From: DAOVGU01 sp030637775 [NCBI: bacterium]
GTDB lineage: Bacteria > Ratteibacteria > UBA8468
DNA: 6,171 bases
Direction of reading: 5' to 3'
NCBI GenBank assembly: GCA_030637775.1
Contig: DAOWFY010000101.1
Location: forward strand, 1 to 6,171
The translations under genes and the position numbers were made by a program. Each line of letters opens with the position of its first letter. The first letter of the stretch is position 1. The notes beneath the pieces are model-generated. The model made no database searches, was not told where the DNA came from, and saw nothing but the letters and a program-made list of their open reading frames with translations. Positions 1 through 6,171 of the stretch are shown in pieces.

Positions 1-125
1 ATCTATGGATGTGGAAAAGCTTCCTTCGGTGGAGGTATGGTTGGTTTAACCACAGCAAAGAATGATAAGGTCTATCTGCATACCTTCCGCTGGCCAGGGG
101 AAGAGATTTGTCTTGCCGGAGTGAA
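1..125 (+). repeat. Terminal direct repeat, left copy
   Basis: Bases 1-125 match bases 6047-6171 in the same orientation with a single difference (A at 17, G at 6063; Lys versus Arg in the encoded fucosidase). The repeat runs to the very end of the window, so its true length to the right is unknown; its left limit is the window start. It codes for the start of the GH29 C-terminal domain. It indicates circularity, a tandem unit of about 6046 bp, or two near-identical fucosidase genes. Confidence 0.95.
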
Positions 126-267
126 GAATAAAATAAAATCGGCTTATCTTTTAGCGAGCAATGAAAAAATTTCCATTACTCAGAAGGCAGAGCGACTTTT
201 CATCCAAGACCTACCCAAAAAAGCACCTGACCCCATTAATACAGTCATTGTATTGAAGTTGGGATGA
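1..267 (+). CDS. GH29 alpha-L-fucosidase, C-terminal fragment (5' end outside window)
   Basis: The frame is open from base 1 (first codon ATC) to a TGA at 265-267 and gives 88 residues. It starts IYGCGKASFGG and continues through KVYLHTFRWPGEEICLAGV to a terminal VIVLKLG. In GH29 fucosidases the end of the catalytic barrel (WMKENKESIYG) is followed by a small beta-sandwich with exactly this style of short strands, so this is that C-terminal domain. The identification is firm because the same residues recur at 6047-6171, directly behind an obvious GH29 catalytic domain. An internal ATG at 37 lies inside the domain and is not a plausible gene start. The catalytic residues are not in this part. 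If the window closes on itself, this is the 3' end of the broken gene at 5267-6171; otherwise it is the tail of a separate upstream paralogue. No clear terminator follows. Confidence 0.85.
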   Translation: MYGCGKASFGGGMVGLTTAKNDKVYLHTFRWPGEEICLAGVKNKIKSAYLLASNEKISITQKAERLFIQDLPKKAPDPINTVIVLKLG

Positions 268-286
268 ATTACTGACCTACAGGAAT

Positions 287-316
287 TTGACAAAAATTGC
301 TTCTTGAGGCTAATAT
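287..316 (+). promoter_or_regulatory. Sigma70-type promoter for hicAB
   Basis: A perfect -35 hexamer TTGACA (287-292) is followed after 18 bases by TAATAT (311-316), one mismatch from TATAAT. It lies just after the fucosidase stop at 267 and 35 bases before the hicA start. Immediately downstream, at 320-338, are three copies of ATAAG followed by G or C, which could be an operator. The last copy runs into the hicA Shine-Dalgarno AAGGAA (335-340, 10 bases before the ATG). The promoter call rests on sequence alone. Confidence 0.7.
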
Positions 317-350
317 ATTATAAGGTATAAGCATAAGGAAACACTGAGCA

Positions 351-599
351 ATGAGTTCTAAAAATAAGCTCCTAATACAGATTCTGCGTGGTGCATCAGA
401 TGCTAATATTCCTTTTGCAGGATTGTGCCAGCTATTAAAAGAAATGGGATTTAAACAACGGATTCGTGGTGACCATCATATTTTTGCGAAAAAGGGAGTT
501 GTAGAGATTCTCAACTTGCAACCCAAGGGTTCAAAAGCTAAGCCATATCAGGTCAAGCAAGTCCGTAGTGTAATTCTAAAATATAAACTCGGGGGTTAG
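351..599 (+). CDS. hicA: HicA-family toxin (mRNA interferase)
   Basis: The product has 82 residues. HicA proteins are small double-stranded-RNA-binding-fold ribonucleases that cleave mRNA in the cytoplasm when not bound by HicB. The family pattern is visible: an N-terminal helix (CQLLKEMGF, residues 26-34), then the core G-x-H-H-x-F segment (RGDHHIFAKKG, 39-49) in which His42 is the expected catalytic residue, and a C-terminal KPYQVKQVRSVILKY helix (64-78). The length is at the upper end for the family because of a short N-terminal extension. The start at 351 is supported by AAGGAA at 335-340 and the TTGACA/TAATAT promoter. hicB begins four bases after the stop, the usual hicA-hicB order. The frame is intact and the catalytic histidine is present, so the toxin is probably functional. 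Confidence 0.9.
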   Translation: MSSKNKLLIQILRGASDANIPFAGLCQLLKEMGFKQRIRGDHHIFAKKGVVEILNLQPKGSKAKPYQVKQVRSVILKYKLGG

Positions 600-603
600 A
601 AAG

Positions 604-813
604 ATGGAAAAATATGAAGTGATTATCTATTGGAGCGGTGGAGACAAAGCTTTTATAGCGGAGGTTCCAGAACTGCCTGGGTGTGAGGCAGACGGTTCGA
701 CGCGAGCGGAGGCTCTGAGCAATGCTCATGTGGTTATTCAGGAATGGATTGAGACTGCTAAAGAGTTAGGACGAGAAATCCCTGAACCCAAGGGGCGTTT
801 GTTGTTTGCCTAA
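604..813 (+). CDS. hicB: HicB-family antitoxin, short form
   Basis: The product has 69 residues. It shows the hallmark HicB partial RNase-H-like fold: an opening strand YEVIIYWSGGDKAFIAEVPE, the conserved LPGCEADGST turn (residues 24-33), and the helix RAEALSNAHVVIQEWIETAKELG (34-56), ending IPEPKGRLLF. HicB binds HicA and blocks its nuclease site. Many HicB proteins carry an added C-terminal HTH or ribbon-helix-helix domain for autorepression; this one stops right after the core and has no visible DNA-binding domain, so any autoregulation would need another factor. It starts four bases after hicA and no strong Shine-Dalgarno is seen, suggesting translational coupling. No clear terminator follows before the lacI-type promoter. 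Confidence 0.9.
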   Translation: MEKYEVIIYWSGGDKAFIAEVPELPGCEADGSTRAEALSNAHVVIQEWIETAKELGREIPEPKGRLLFA

Positions 814-850
814 AGGAACAAGATTTCTAATAACTCTGAAAAAAGAAGGG

Positions 851-860
851 CACCCGCTTT
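851..860 (+). promoter_or_regulatory. Putative upstream LacI-type operator (O1)
   Basis: CACCCGCTTT contains ACCCGCTT (852-859), one mismatch from the AANCGNTT core used by many LacI-family regulators. It carries CCGCTT, the reverse complement of AAGCGG in the downstream site, so the two sites are in opposite orientation. Its centre is 37 bases from that of the downstream site, and it overlaps the -35 region (TTTACA, 858-863). The assignment is inferred from pattern and position only. Confidence 0.4.
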
Positions 861-886
861 ACAAAACTATTTTTTTGAGGTATAAT
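858..886 (+). promoter_or_regulatory. Sigma70-type promoter of the lacI-led operon
   Basis: TTTACA (858-863, one mismatch from TTGACA) and a perfect TATAAT (881-886) are separated by exactly 17 bases, the optimum spacing. Transcription would start near 892-895, about 20 bases before the regulator ATG at 914. It is the only strong promoter visible upstream of the four sugar genes, which are packed with gaps of 2 to 47 bases, so it probably drives all of them. Confidence 0.8.
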
Positions 887-887
887 G

Positions 888-897
888 TAAGCGGTTA
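888..897 (+). promoter_or_regulatory. Putative LacI-family operator at the transcription start (O2)
   Basis: TAAGCGGTTA fits the TAANCGNTTA pattern of LacI-family operators, with a central CG at 892-893 and matching outer arms TAA/TTA. It begins one base after the -10 hexamer and covers the expected transcription start, a classic position for repression by blocking RNA polymerase. The regulator encoded 17 bases downstream is the obvious candidate to bind it (autorepression relieved by a sugar ligand). This is an inference from pattern and placement. Confidence 0.6.
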
Positions 898-913
898 ATA
901 GAAAGGGATTACA

Positions 914-1954
914 ATGACCTCTATCACCGATGTTGCTGAGAAGGCTAAAGTCTCTACTGCGACTGTTTCTCGTGTCTTAAATAAAAAGGATAACCTTATT
1001 CCTATCAGCAAAGAGACAAAACAAAAGGTCTTAAAGGCAGCAGAAGAGCTTGACTACCATCCCAATATTCTTGCCCGCAGCCTTGCCCAGAAGAAGAGTC
1101 AGACGATTGGACTTATTGTTCCTAATATTGCCAACCCTTTCTTTTCTCAAATAACAAAAGGAGTGGAAGATGTTACCAGTAAAGAGAAGTACAATGTTAT
1201 TCTCTGCGATACTGATGAGAAAGAGGAAAGGGAGATTGAGTATCTTAATATCCTGAGGGGAAGATGGGTAGATAGCCTTATCTTCTCAGGGGCAAAGGAA
1301 GAGAAGACTGCAACTCACATCTTAGACACAGGGAAGAGAATTCCCATAGTAGGGATTGACCGAGAGGTTGATGGTCCTTTTTCCTATTCCGTACTTCTTG
1401 ATAATGTGAAAGGAGGATATGAGGCTACAAAATATCTTCTGAAATTGGGCCATCGAAGGATTGGTCTTATTTGTGGAGGTAGGAAACTACCCCACATAAA
1501 AAATATTATTCAGCGAGAGGAAGGATACCAACAAGCTTTAAAGGAATATGGAATAAAGTTTATTCCTTCTCTTTTAGTAGAAGGAAACTTAGAAGTAGAA
1601 GGCGGCAAAGAAGCGGCCAAGAAGTTGCTTTCCCTTTCCCCTCCTCCCACAGCAATCTTTGCTCTTAATGATCTGATGGCTATTGGTGCCCTCAACTACT
1701 TAAAGGAAAAAAGAATCCGGGTTCCTGAAGAGATTTCTCTGATTGGCTTTGATGATATTCCTATGGTCTCCTTAACAGAACCAGCCTTAACGACGATGGC
1801 CCAACCCACCTACGAAATGGGAGCTGCTGCGGCAAAGATGAGTCTAAAGGTTATTGCCGGGAAGATTCCAAAGAGAAAAAGACTGATTTTAAAGGCAACT
1901 CTTATTATTCGTAGTTCCTGTAAAGAACCCACAGAAAACTCTCAAAGAATATAA
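914..1954 (+). CDS. LacI-family transcriptional regulator
   Basis: The product has 346 residues, the usual length for the family. An N-terminal helix-turn-helix (SITDVAEKAKVSTATVSRVLN, residues 3-23) is followed by the hinge helix with its minor-groove leucine (ILARSLAQKKS, 52-62). After that comes a periplasmic-binding-protein-like effector domain: TIGLIVPNIANPFF (64-77), a sugar-contact segment near Arg201 (REEGYQQALKEYGI), FALNDLMAIGAL (249-260), LIGFDDIP (276-283), LTTMAQP (292-298). The start at 914 is supported by AAAGGG (903-908) and the promoter at 858-886. It is the first gene of the presumed operon and most likely represses it through the sites at 851-860 and 888-897. The ligand cannot be read from sequence; the neighbouring fucosidase-like genes suggest fucose or a fucosylated sugar. 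The HTH-following loop (KKDNLIPIS, 24-32) is slightly longer than usual. The frame is intact. Confidence 0.95.
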   Translation: MTSITDVAEKAKVSTATVSRVLNKKDNLIPISKETKQKVLKAAEELDYHPNILARSLAQKKSQTIGLIVPNIANPFFSQITKGVEDVTSKEKYNVILCDTDEKEEREIEYLNILRGRWVDSLIFSGAKEEKTATHILDTGKRIPIVGIDREVDGPFSYSVLLDNVKGGYEATKYLLKLGHRRIGLICGGRKLPHIKNIIQREEGYQQALKEYGIKFIPSLLVEGNLEVEGGKEAAKKLLSLSPPPTAIFALNDLMAIGALNYLKEKRIRVPEEISLIGFDDIPMVSLTEPALTTMAQPTYEMGAAAAKMSLKVIAGKIPKRKRLILKATLIIRSSCKEPTENSQRI

Positions 1955-1966
1955 ATGAAGAAAAAT

Positions 1967-1972
1967 AGGAGG
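1967..1972 (+). promoter_or_regulatory. Strong Shine-Dalgarno of the cupin isomerase gene
   Basis: AGGAGG lies seven bases before the ATG at 1980, an ideal spacing that fixes this start. It sits in the 25-base gap after the LacI-family gene, supporting co-transcription and strong translation of the second gene. Confidence 0.85.
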
Positions 1973-1979
1973 CACTCAA

Positions 1980-3218
1980 ATGTTTATTCAGCGCAATAAT
2001 GAAAAGATTAATCTATTAAAAAAAGAGCTTTCAAAAAATAATGGTATCCTTAGATTAACCCCTACCTGGGTTCCTCGAGCTTTTTTAATGCCGGGGAGAA
2101 GATTAAGGTTAGACCCCCAGGACCTATATGCTCTGGGAGCCAATAGAGGTGGGATAGATGAAAGGTGGTTTGCCTCCACTGTAAGAGTGGATAATCCAGG
2201 TGCTCCTGAGGATGAAGGATTAAGTTACATCGTCATTGCTAAAACAGCCGGTATTAAAAAAATTCTTCTAAAAGAAGCAACTGAATTGATGGGCGAGAAA
2301 CTTCTCGGAAGCGAAATTATGGCAAAACATAATGGTTGGATGGTGCTGACAAAATTCTTTGACAACCTTGGCCCCATTCCTTTTCATATGCATCAGACAG
2401 ATAGAGATGCTAAAAAAGTGGGTAGGTTAGGCAAGCCTGAAGCTTACTATTTTCCGCTTCAATTAAATTTTACCAGAAATAACTTTCCCTATACTTTTTT
2501 TGGACTAAAGTCTGGAACAACCAAAGAAGATATCAAAAAATGCTTGCAAAGATGGAATAAGGGAGATAACGGGATCCTCGATTTTTCAAAGGCATACCGG
2601 CTGAAACTTGGTACCGGTTGGGATGTGCCGGTAGGTATTCTTCATGCTCCAGGCTCTCTGGTCACCTATGAACCACAAAGATCCTCCGATGTATTTGGCA
2701 TGTTTCAATCAATGGTGGAAGGCCGTTATGTCGAAAGAGAATTTCTAACAAAGGATGTCCCGAAGGAACTTCATCAAGATTTTGATTATCTGGTAGAAAT
2801 GTTAGACTGGGAGAAAAATGTTGACCCGGAATTTGGCAAAAATAGATTCCGGGCTCCGATACCGGTAAAAGAGTTAGATGAAATGCGGGAGAATGGTTAT
2901 GAAGAAAAATGGGTCGTTTATGGAAGCCAATATTTTAGTGCCAAAGAATTAACAATCTTTCCCAAAAGAGAAGCAGTTATAAAGGATAAAGGAGCCTATG
3001 GTTTTATCCTGGTGCAGGGACATGGTTTAATTGAAAATTTGGAGATGGAGACTCCGGTGATGATACGGTTTAAACAATTAACCAATGATGAATTTTTTGT
3101 AACTTATAATAGGGCAAGACAAGGAGTAAAGATAGTTAATAAAAGTTCAGAAGATAATTTAGTGATGTTAAAACATTTTGGTCCTGATAACTCGGAAGCA
3201 CCAATAATACAGCAATAA
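1980..3218 (+). CDS. Class I phosphomannose-isomerase-like cupin protein (putative sugar isomerase)
   Basis: The product has 412 residues, intact, with an excellent AGGAGG site. It resembles class I mannose-6-phosphate isomerases (cupin fold, zinc-dependent, cytoplasmic). The family's metal ligands appear in order: PIPFHMHQTD supplies His136 and His138, GKPEAYYF supplies Glu154 (the KPE motif), and VPVGILHAPGSLVTYEP supplies His222 (the xxLHA motif). An ERWFAST segment (61-67) followed by EGLSYIV (79-85) also matches the ManA N-terminal region. The C-terminal part (about 310-412: VVYGSQYFSAKELTIFP, GFILVQGHGLIE) looks like a second cupin barrel. No signal peptide or membrane segment is seen. 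It is probably an aldose-ketose isomerase acting on the sugar released by the downstream glycosidases, or on its phosphate; true phosphomannose isomerase activity is unproven. The downstream gene begins within two bases of its stop, implying translational coupling. Confidence 0.75.
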   Translation: MFIQRNNEKINLLKKELSKNNGILRLTPTWVPRAFLMPGRRLRLDPQDLYALGANRGGIDERWFASTVRVDNPGAPEDEGLSYIVIAKTAGIKKILLKEATELMGEKLLGSEIMAKHNGWMVLTKFFDNLGPIPFHMHQTDRDAKKVGRLGKPEAYYFPLQLNFTRNNFPYTFFGLKSGTTKEDIKKCLQRWNKGDNGILDFSKAYRLKLGTGWDVPVGILHAPGSLVTYEPQRSSDVFGMFQSMVEGRYVEREFLTKDVPKELHQDFDYLVEMLDWEKNVDPEFGKNRFRAPIPVKELDEMRENGYEEKWVVYGSQYFSAKELTIFPKREAVIKDKGAYGFILVQGHGLIENLEMETPVMIRFKQLTNDEFFVTYNRARQGVKIVNKSSEDNLVMLKHFGPDNSEAPIIQQ

Positions 3219-3220
3219 AT

Positions 3221-3337
3221 ATGGATAGAAAAATATTTCTCTGCAAATCCCATCCCGACTTCCATACGCCGGAAGATGTTGAGGTGGGGAAGGGATTTAG
3301 GGGGGGAAGAATTTGGAAAAAGATTAAAGGAGAGTAA
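3221..3337 (+). other. Out-of-frame true N-terminus of the GH151-like gene
   Basis: An ATG two bases after the cupin stop opens a 38-codon frame ending at TAA 3335-3337. Its residues include HPDFHTPEDVEVGKGF, which matches the conserved N-terminal DFHT strand of GHL6-type glycosidases, so it is the real start of the following protein. The link to the long frame is lost in the G7 run at 3300-3306; with six G the reading would pass GFRGEEFGKRLK without interruption. The first ten residues (MDRKIFLCKS) are less convincing. The other frame reads WIEKYFSANPI just before, so a second single-base loss near 3255 is possible. Confidence 0.6.
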
Positions 3338-5219
3338 TGTAGATGCGGTATGTTTCTTTGCCAAGTGCCATTATGGTCACTCCTATTACTACACGAAGAT
3401 TGGCTATCGCCACCCAAAACTGCATAAGGATATGTTGAAGGAGGTTGCTGAAGGATGCCATAAGTACGGTATTGGTGTCATTGCCTACTACAGCACCTTT
3501 GTTGATAAACATGCGGGCATTAAACATCCAGAGTGGTGTAAACATGACAAAAACGAAAATATCGATACGCAGACTTTTGGAAGTACGTTTAGAAGTATAT
3601 GTTTGAATACCCCTTATGTGGATGAACTCTTAATCCCCCAGGTAAGGGAAATTGTTCAAAATTATGATGTAGAGGGGATATTCTTTGACACAATGGCAGA
3701 CCTTACCCCCTGTCACTGTCCTCACTGCAGGAAACTTTTTAAGAAAGAAATTCCTCTTTCCAAAGAAAACTCTCTGTGGCCTGAATATACGAAATGGTTC
3801 TCCGAACAATATAAAAACTTTTTTATCAAAGTCTTAAGTTTGGTACATAATGCTAACCCGGAGGTAAAGATTGGCTTTAACTGGATGTGGTGCGAAAGGG
3901 ATGCTGAAGTGCCGCCAGAAGATATTGACTGGCTGGTTCTGGATACCGCTCAGGGAAACTGGCAATCTTTAATGTGCAGTTTTTCCTCCAAGTATTTTGC
4001 CGGGACAGACTATCCCTTTGATGTTATGGTCGGCAGGTTCCTGCATGGATTGGGGGACTGGAGTACCCGACCTTCTGATATGCTTAAACAAGAGGTAGCA
4101 ACAACCACAGCCAATGGAGGGGGATTTTTTATTATTGATCGGATGCTACCCGACGGTTCTCTGGATAAGGAAGCCTATCAGGCATTAAAAAATAGCTATA
4201 GCATTGTTAAAGAGCGAGAGGATGTGGTGAAAGATATCAGGCATATAGCGGAAATAGGTATCCTACATTCTGCCAATAGTCTCATCGGGAAAAATCTTGA
4301 ATTTTATGCTGATTTTGAGACACGAAATGAAAGGCTCAAACCGATCAAAGGAGCCTTTAAACTTTTGATGGAACACGGAAGGCATTTCACCATCCTCAAT
4401 GAAGAGATGCTGAATAAAAAAATAAATGAATATAAATTAATTATTCTACCGGAACAGGAATTCTTAGAGGACAAAACTAAAGCAAATTTAGTAAAATACG
4501 TGAAAAATGGAGGGAAAGTTCTTGCTTCTCAGATTCATTCAAAAACAGATATTGATAAAAACATTCTTAAACTTTTCGGCACTGAATTTAAGGAATTCAC
4601 TAAATTAGAATATGGCTATATAGGAGCAAAAAATCCTATCATGATCAGAGGGTCATTCGCTAAAACTAAAACTACCACTGGAGTAGAAGTATCTCCTTAC
4701 CTTATACCCTCAGGGGCAGAAGAGCGAAAAGGAGATTTTGGCTGGGGCGTAGCTCCGCCGGATAAAAAAGCAGATTTCCCGGCAGTGATCTTTAATAAAT
4801 TTGGAAAAGGGGAGAGTATCTATATTACTGCACCTATATTTCTTTCCTATTTGGATTTTCAGAACCCGCATTTGGCAAGATATATCCTGGGATTGGTGGA
4901 TAAACTCTTCCCTGATCCAACCGTTAAGTTGTTTGCTCCACCCCAGGTGGAATTGGTTGTGGCCAGAAAAAATAATGGCTTAATTATTCATTTAGTGAAT
5001 CATTCCGGAGAGAGAATGATTGGTAAATGGCCTTTGACAGAATATGTCCCAGAATTCAGTGATATTAAGGTTTTCGTGAGAGCAGACAGAGAAATTAAAA
5101 CCATTGTCTCTATCCCTTCCAATAAAAGAATCCCCTTTACTATTAATGGTCTTTATGCGGAGTTTTTGCTCCAAAAACTGCATGTTATGGAAAGTATAAA
5201 GATAGCTGATTATTTTTAG
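3276..5219 (+). CDS. GHL6/GH151-like glycoside hydrolase, putative alpha-L-fucosidase (N-terminus frameshifted)
   Basis: The open frame gives 647 residues, but the ATG at 3276 has no ribosome site and is probably not the native start: the native gene begins at 3221 and is broken by one extra G in the G7 run at 3300-3306. The architecture is a TIM-barrel of the hypothetical glycosyl hydrolase 6 type (FAKCHYGHSYYYTKIG 28-43; HPEWC 84-88; GIFFDTMADL 134-143; MVGRFLHGLGDWSTRP 251-266; TANGGGFFIIDRMLPDG 278-294). A class-I-amidotransferase-like beta-galactosidase trimerisation domain follows (about 325-545; EYKLIILPEQEFLEDKTKA 385-403, NGGKVLAS 411-418), and then a C-terminal beta domain. To my knowledge this pairing occurs in GH151 alpha-L-fucosidases, and a GH29 fucosidase lies directly downstream, so fucoside hydrolysis is the best guess. 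A CHCPHC motif (146-151) follows Asp138. No signal peptide is seen, implying action inside the cell on imported oligosaccharides. Other glycosidase specificities are not excluded. Confidence 0.75.
   Translation: MLRWGRDLGGEEFGKRLKESNVDAVCFFAKCHYGHSYYYTKIGYRHPKLHKDMLKEVAEGCHKYGIGVIAYYSTFVDKHAGIKHPEWCKHDKNENIDTQTFGSTFRSICLNTPYVDELLIPQVREIVQNYDVEGIFFDTMADLTPCHCPHCRKLFKKEIPLSKENSLWPEYTKWFSEQYKNFFIKVLSLVHNANPEVKIGFNWMWCERDAEVPPEDIDWLVLDTAQGNWQSLMCSFSSKYFAGTDYPFDVMVGRFLHGLGDWSTRPSDMLKQEVATTTANGGGFFIIDRMLPDGSLDKEAYQALKNSYSIVKEREDVVKDIRHIAEIGILHSANSLIGKNLEFYADFETRNERLKPIKGAFKLLMEHGRHFTILNEEMLNKKINEYKLIILPEQEFLEDKTKANLVKYVKNGGKVLASQIHSKTDIDKNILKLFGTEFKEFTKLEYGYIGAKNPIMIRGSFAKTKTTTGVEVSPYLIPSGAEERKGDFGWGVAPPDKKADFPAVIFNKFGKGESIYITAPIFLSYLDFQNPHLARYILGLVDKLFPDPTVKLFAPPQVELVVARKNNGLIIHLVNHSGERMIGKWPLTEYVPEFSDIKVFVRADREIKTIVSIPSNKRIPFTINGLYAEFLLQKLHVMESIKIADYF
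3300..3306 (+). repeat. G7 homopolymer at a frameshift
   Basis: Seven consecutive G separate the DFHT-containing N-terminal frame from the long catalytic frame of the GH151-like gene. Six G would join the two. Such a run is prone to replication slippage and also to sequencing error. Confidence 0.85.
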
Positions 5220-5755
5220 TTAGAGGAGAAGAATTTCAATAACTCAAATGATAATATTATGAGAAGATGAATAATACCTCATGGTTTAAGAAGCCCGTTT
5301 TGGGATGTTCATTCACTAGGGACTGTATTCTCTTCCTGCCAGAGGTGAATGGGTAATGCATATTGAGAAGATTCCCAAAGAAGAGTATATCTTATTAGCA
5401 AAACAATTTAAGCCCAAGAAATTTAATGCTACCTCCTGGGTGAAATTAGCTATAAGTGCGGGAATGAAATATATCGTCTTAACTACCAGGCATCATGATG
5501 GTTTTTGCCTTTTTGATAGCAAAGTCTCTGACTTTACCTCGGTCAAAACTGCCGCTAAAAAGGATTTTGTCGCTGAGTATGTAAAAGCTTGTCGCAAATT
5601 TAATATGAAGATTGGGTTTTACTATTCTCTTTTAGACTGGAGATTCCCTGGTTATCACAACCGAGAGAAATATCCGGAAAGTTTTAACGAAATGGTGGAG
5701 CAGGCACACTCACAGGTTAAGGAGTTGATGAGTAATTATGGCAAGATTGATATTC

Positions 5756-5764
5756 TCTGGTTTG
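5756..5764 (+). other. Internal deletion junction in the GH29 gene
   Basis: TCTGGTTTG is at once the end of the ILWF(D) coding stretch in one frame and the start of SGL(AEG) in the next. Family order places about 100 bases between these two points. The shared nine bases look like the microhomology at which the deletion occurred. The frame change requires a missing length of 3n+2 bases, for example 101 or 104. The missing sequence itself is not visible, so the length is an estimate. Confidence 0.6.
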
Positions 5765-6046
5765 GCTGAAGGTGTGGATACCCCTGAGCAAAATATTATC
5801 CCTTCAAAAGAAGGAAGAGCCTGGGAATCCTGTATGACCATCGGGGACTCTTGTGGTTGGGGATATATCAAAAATAATCCTAATCTGAAATCTACTACCC
5901 AACTCATCCAGTATTTGGTAACTGCAGCCAGTGGTGGCGGGAATTACCTTCTTAATGTTGGCCTTAAACCGGATGGCACAATTCCGGCTCCTTTAGTAAA
6001 GCGTCTTAAGGAAATCGGGGCATGGATGAAAGAAAATAAAGAATCA

Positions 6047-6171
6047 ATCTATGGATGTGGAAGAGCTTCCTTCGGTGGAGGTATGGTTGGTTTAACCACA
6101 GCAAAGAATGATAAGGTCTATCTGCATACCTTCCGCTGGCCAGGGGAAGAGATTTGTCTTGCCGGAGTGAA
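6047..6171 (+). repeat. Terminal direct repeat, right copy
   Basis: This is the same 125 bases as at 1-125 with G at 6063 in place of A17, in the same orientation and the same codon frame of a GH29 C-terminal domain. Bases 6041-6046 before it (GAATCA) complete the coding run WMKENKESIYG. Joining the right copy to base 126 would finish the fucosidase gene at the TGA at 265-267. Confidence 0.95.

What the first reader, a model, noticed from the sequence alone, without database searches (positions are those of the whole stretch)
1..6171. Window ends repeat each other: circular molecule, tandem unit or twin fucosidase genes
Bases 1-125 and 6047-6171 are identical but for one base, in the same orientation. 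A closed circle of 6046 bp would make one fucosidase gene run across the junction to its stop at 265-267. A k-mer overlap from an assembler should be exact, and this one is not, so a tandem amplification of the whole hicAB-lacI-isomerase-glycosidase unit, or two diverging gene copies, is a real alternative. No replication or mobility gene supports an autonomous circle.
Basis: partly seen in the sequence, partly recalled or inferred. Interest (0 to 1): 0.6.

Follow-up and report, generated by a model that had tools for sequence, protein, structure and literature searches.

The report
Contig ends in twin fucosidase genes
The matching ends of this short contig are best explained by near-identical stretches in two fucose-sugar enzyme genes on a bacterial chromosome, where the assembly broke off, and there is no good sign of a small circular DNA.

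Summary
The repeat is real: 1-125 and 6047-6171 match at 124 of 125 bases on one strand, differing at base 17. The window is one whole contig (C18) of a MAG of 177 contigs, 83.5% complete. The circle is not supported. Contig C101 of the same MAG ends in the same stretch: its first 99 bases (reverse strand) equal the tail exactly, including the tail-type base 17, then run into a UROD-like gene, fucI and a kinase. So the stretch has two continuations, head and C101, which differ at 31 of 146 bases over 126-271. The tail-side fucosidase is broken (frame change, stop, 104-bp deletion), so closing the circle would not give an intact gene. Relatives hold intact fucosidases on ordinary contigs. Best reading: two diverging chromosomal fucosidase copies share a recently homogenised tract, and the assembly stopped there. 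Reads could not be examined, and the MAG holds only one fucosidase 5' half, so a tandem duplication stays open. Low interest.

The parts
1..125 (+). head copy of the shared fucosidase stretch (base 17 = A)
   Evidence: 98/98 identical to C101 over 18-115
1..267 (+). 3' end of an alpha-L-fucosidase gene, open frame to the stop at 265-267
   Evidence: 79% aa identity to residues 306-391 of the intact G003 fucosidase; no Pfam match for the fragment alone
286..814 (+). hicAB block (hicA 351-599, hicB 604-813, with upstream stretch), 93% identical to a block elsewhere in relative G003 (C35:2324-2852)
   Evidence: PF07927 25 bits, under its cut-off of 27; PF15919 34.1 bits and PF21748 27.8 bits, over cut-off
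914..1954 (+). LacI-family regulator
   Evidence: PF00356 and PF13377; best NCBIfam models RbsR and CytR, under their cut-offs
1980..3218 (+).
3276..5219 (+). glycoside hydrolase of GHL6 type with a GH42-trimerisation-like domain
   Evidence: PF14871 96.9 bits, PF08532 39.9 bits
5267..6171 (+). broken alpha-L-fucosidase gene, cut by the contig end: frame change between the WF and EARFG residues (about 5281-5292), in-frame TAG at 5317-5319, 104 bases missing after 5765 against G003. The start at 5267 is my reading of the sequence
   Evidence: PF01120 positions 79-209 and 257-345 in two frames
6047..6171 (+). tail copy of the shared stretch (base 17 = G); 6063-6161 equals the reverse-strand start of C101 exactly (99 bases)

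Best explanation
The window is one linear contig from a bacterial chromosome, and its ends match because they lie in two diverging copies of an alpha-L-fucosidase gene that share a nearly identical stretch of about 100-125 bp. Upstream lies a fucosidase gene of which the head (1-267) is the 3' end, followed by hicAB, LacI, an isomerase-like gene and GHL6. Downstream lies a second, broken fucosidase. A short-read assembler could not pass the shared stretch, so contigs C18 and C101 both stop in it. Shown: the repeat, its third occurrence in C101, the two different 3' continuations, the lesions of the tail-side gene. Inferred: that the broken gene continues into C101 (UROD-like, fucI, kinase), that the reads were short, and that the sharp change from 100% to 79% identity marks gene conversion or recent recombination between the copies.
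For: C101 (reverse strand) starts at the homologue of window base 17, equals the tail over 99 bases, then differs at tail base 6162; it carries the tail-type G17. 99 bp is among the k-mer lengths named in a CheckV figure legend (PMC8116208). Head and C101 agree at 98/98 over 18-115 but 115/146 over 126-271; Fisher p=6e-8 for 18-115 against 116-271. Over 126-271 the head is nearer to the G003 gene (122/146) than C101 is (108/146), and past the stop only the head resembles G003 (22/25 against 5/25). G003, G002 and G001 each hold an uninterrupted fucosidase frame; in G003 a UROD-like gene lies next on, in G002 FucI and FucK. G080:C43 holds fucosidase, UROD-like, GHL6-like (28% aa), LacI and isomerase-like genes within 12.8 kb on one strand. 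Fucosidase-region matches on two contigs occur in G004, G018, G023, G025 and (weakly) G028, so more than one such gene per genome is not unusual here. C1 and C13 of the MAG also end in one shared exact stretch of 139 bp, so contigs that stop inside shared sequence are not peculiar to C18.
Against: The MAG holds only one fucosidase 5' half, on C18 itself; two genes should give two. The MAG is 83.5% complete and 3 of 20 sampled contigs read as N at both sampled ends, so the other may be missing or withheld, but it was not found. Base 6162 of the tail agrees with the head, not with C101. No single k-mer length explains the exact overlaps of 99, 108 and 139 bases. The mosaic of the tail-side gene could also come from a chimaeric assembly.
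Confidence: 0.73

Rival explanations
1. Chromosomal tandem duplication of the 6.05-kb unit, formed by unequal crossing-over between fucosidase copies; the last unit runs on into C101.
For: The tail is the only fucosidase 5' half found in the MAG, and two continuations (head, C101) leave the same stretch, as a repeated unit followed by C101 would give.
Against: No coverage or read data; the first unit would still need a left flank, which is not seen; base 17 differs between the ends.
Confidence: 0.13
2. Strain mixture: C18 and C101 come from different strains whose fucosidase genes differ, and the assembler mixed them.
For: The base-17 and base-116 differences are mixed between head, tail and C101; the genome is fragmentary, 177 contigs.
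Against: Head and C101 differ at 31 of 146 bases over 126-271 and do not resemble each other past the stop, 5/25, more than strains binned together usually differ (my judgement).
Confidence: 0.09
3. An autonomous 6046-bp circle (plasmid-like) or an excised circle of this segment.
For: The ends overlap head-to-tail in one orientation, and the last open frame of the tail (5738-6169) and the head frame (1-267) agree over the shared residues.
Against: The same stretch continues into C101; no replication or mobility gene by Pfam; 4 plasmid records match, each over at most 4% of the window, and no phage record; the overlap is inexact at base 17; the fused gene would be broken; G+C is 39.9%, C101 41.1%.
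Confidence: 0.05

Closest known systems
Direct-terminal-repeat contigs of metagenome assemblies (CheckV, PMC8116208, passages seen)
   Same: Contig with a same-strand repeat of at least 20 bp at both ends
   Different: Here the repeat is inexact (one mismatch; 108 bp exact) and is also present on another contig, so it does not show a closed molecule
Chromosomal alpha-L-fucosidase / L-fucose gene cluster
   Same: C101 has a fucosidase end, UROD-like gene, fucI and kinase; G002 has fucosidase, FucI and FucK; G003 has fucosidase and the UROD-like gene
   Different: The window has hicAB after one fucosidase end and a broken second copy

Membership tests
Autonomous circular plasmid | Head-to-tail continuity with no other flank | tested here: not met
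   The same stretch also leads into C101
Autonomous circular plasmid | Replication or mobility genes | tested here: not met
   None by Pfam at E 0.001 among the eight frames given; the 412-aa frame has no match at all
Autonomous circular plasmid | Copy number above the chromosome, read pairs across the junction | not testable with these tools
   No reads held
Alpha-L-fucosidase (PF01120), tail-side gene | Full-length domain in one frame | tested here: not met
   Positions 79-209 and 257-345 in two frames, stops inside; the intact G003 protein covers 24-345
Alpha-L-fucosidase (PF01120), tail-side gene | Aspartate after the LW[FY] motif (its catalytic role is recalled, not tested) | tested here: not met
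   D173 is invariant in three relatives and aligns with D in PDB 6gn6; the window frame reads ILWFG then a stop, at the start of the deletion
HicAB toxin-antitoxin pair | HicA gene followed by HicB gene | tested here: inconclusive
   HicB over cut-off, HicA at 25 bits under its cut-off of 27; the two frames are adjacent; toxicity not testable

The most novel reading that the evidence does not exclude
The two fucosidase copies act as direct repeats through which a 6-kb sugar-use unit (hicAB, LacI, isomerase-like, GHL6) duplicates or pops out as a circle, with HicAB stabilising it. In relative G003 a 93%-identical hicAB block also sits between direct repeats of a gene end.
Probability: 0.07. Interest if true: 0.4.

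Novelty: already known. Interest (0 to 1): 0.12.

Why it matters
It warns that a terminal repeat on a short MAG contig need not mean a circle: searching the same MAG with the repeat shows a second contig that shares it. The biology (diverging fucosidase copies with a homogenised tract, one copy decayed) is ordinary.

Tried and rejected
Circle: rejected as main reading because C101 shares the end stretch and the fused gene would be broken. Plasmid and phage collections: 4 plasmid records matched over at most 4% of the window each, no phage record. Far end of C101: its only match in the MAG is itself, so it does not close a loop with C18. Inferring the assembler's k-mer from overlaps: 44 contig ends (20 sampled contigs plus C18 and C101), of which 6 read as all N; in the 40 rows printed only C1/C13, C18/C18 and C18/C101 share long stretches, the other rows being runs of N; the lengths do not fit one k; left open. 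GHL6 relatives in genome contigs: 8 pattern matches, none confirmed. Paper searches: listings of 10 of 441 and 8 of 121 papers; passages of one paper, CheckV, 12 of 46 places shown. My notebook entry calls a TAA at 5287 a stop mutation; searches show it belongs to a frame change instead. MAFFT places no gap there, so that lesion is my reading of the frames.

Full report
What is there. The window is the complete contig C18 (6171 bp) of a MAG of 177 contigs and 1.40 Mb, 83.5% complete and 1.2% contaminated. Bases 1-125 and 6047-6171 are direct repeats with one difference, base 17.

A second contig shares the repeat. A search of the MAG with 1-300 finds, besides the two window ends, C101:12681-12934 on the minus strand at 87%; with 5341-6171 it finds C101:12827-12935 at 99%. 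Read on its reverse strand, C101 begins at the homologue of window base 17. It differs from the tail at one of 109 bases (6162) and from the head at two (17 and 116), so the first 99 bases of C101 equal 6063-6161 exactly. C101 then carries the end of a fucosidase, a UROD-like gene (weak matches, under the cut-offs), L-fucose isomerase (1111.5 bits, over its cut-off of 775) and a rhamnulokinase-like kinase (392.6 bits, under its cut-off). One stretch therefore has two continuations, the window's own head and C101.

The two continuations are different genes. Head and C101 are identical over 98 of 98 bases (18-115), then 115/146 (126-271) and 5/25 over 268-292, compared without gaps. Fisher's test on 98/98 against 124/156 (116-271) gives p=6e-8. 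Over 126-271 the head is nearer to relative G003 (122/146) than C101 is (108/146), and only the head resembles G003 past the stop (22/25 against 5/25). The sharp edge suggests gene conversion or recent recombination; that is inference, and trimming of contigs by the assembler may set part of the edge.

The tail-side gene is broken. Against the G003 protein it matches in two pieces, residues 12-180 with stops inside and 205-345 in another frame; Pfam gives a similar split. The G003 protein itself is a full fucosidase (PF01120, 312 bits; nearest PDB chain 6gn6, E=1.7e-95). The lesions are a frame change between the WF and EARFG residues (not marked as a gap by MAFFT), an in-frame TAG at 5317-5319 where three relatives have tryptophan, and 104 bases missing after 5765 against G003 (122 against G001). 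The residues lost include the aspartate of the LW[FY]D motif, invariant in three relatives; that this is the GH29 nucleophile is recalled, not tested. The gene is also a mosaic: 5281-5764 is nearest G003 (80.4%; G001 68.8%), 5765-5938 nearest G001 (72.4%; G003 52.4%), 5939-6046 and 6047-6171 nearest G003 again (85.2% and 82.4%; G001 60.2% and 60.0%). This points to recombination among fucosidase copies in the lineage, although a chimaeric assembly could mimic it.

Relatives. Of 146 genomes searched with the whole window, the MAG itself included, 37 had a match. G001 (same genus), G002 and G003 (same family) each have an uninterrupted fucosidase frame; in G003 and G002 the homologues of window tail and head lie in one gene. 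In G003 the UROD-like gene lies next on (fucI and kinase were not found on that contig); in G002 fucI and the kinase follow. G004, G018, G023, G025 and, weakly, G028 show fucosidase-region matches on two contigs. In the distant G080, fucosidase (61% aa), UROD-like (40%), GHL6-like (28%), LacI (43%) and isomerase-like (64%) genes lie within 12.8 kb of one contig; the low identities of some mean these need not be orthologues. This fits a single chromosomal sugar-use locus of which C18 and C101 are fragments; the order in this MAG is inferred.

Against my reading. The MAG holds one fucosidase 5' half, where two genes predict two: besides the two pieces on C18 the family search found only the GHL6 gene (38.6 bits), and the protein search only the two pieces and the two 3' ends. 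The MAG is incomplete and 3 of 20 sampled contigs (C8, C9, C21) read as N at both sampled ends, so this absence is weak evidence, but it stands. The tail agrees with the head at base 116 and with C101 at base 17. Exact overlaps of 99, 108 and 139 bases do not fit one k-mer. A chromosomal tandem duplication that ends in C101 fits the same facts and cannot be excluded without reads.

Circle. No replication or mobility gene by Pfam among eight frames, 4 plasmid records each over at most 4% of the window and no phage record, the inexact overlap, the continuation into C101 and the broken fused gene speak against it. The CheckV paper (PMC8116208; passages seen) says in a figure legend that repeats at contig ends from circular templates are equal to assembler k-mer lengths, for example 55, 77 and 99 bp; the exact head-tail match here is 108 bp, the exact tail-C101 match 99 bp. 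[quoted passage not shown]

Verdict. Ordinary, low interest.

Noticed in passing
window 286-814; L030 (G003:C35) 2078-3162: The hicAB block is 93% identical to one in G003, against 80-85% for the fucosidase, and sits at another place there, between two direct repeats (228 bp, 96%) that both encode 73 aa of a Mg-chelatase C-terminal domain (PF13335, 80.5 and 83.4 bits). It suggests that the hicAB block moves.
   Followed up: partly
window 886-896: LacI-family operator-like site (AANCGNTT core, motif recalled) just before lacI, the only match to that core in the window; possible autoregulation.
   Followed up: partly
G000 C1 end and C13 start (L062, L054): Two contigs of the MAG run into the same exact 139-bp stretch. 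I take it for the end of a transposase gene from recalled motifs; Pfam gives only a sub-threshold rve_3 match (E=0.048).
   Followed up: partly
window 1980-3218: 412-aa protein without Pfam or NCBIfam match at E 0.001 and best PDB E-value 0.22, with 64% and 53% identical relatives in G080 and G061; its function is open.
   Followed up: partly
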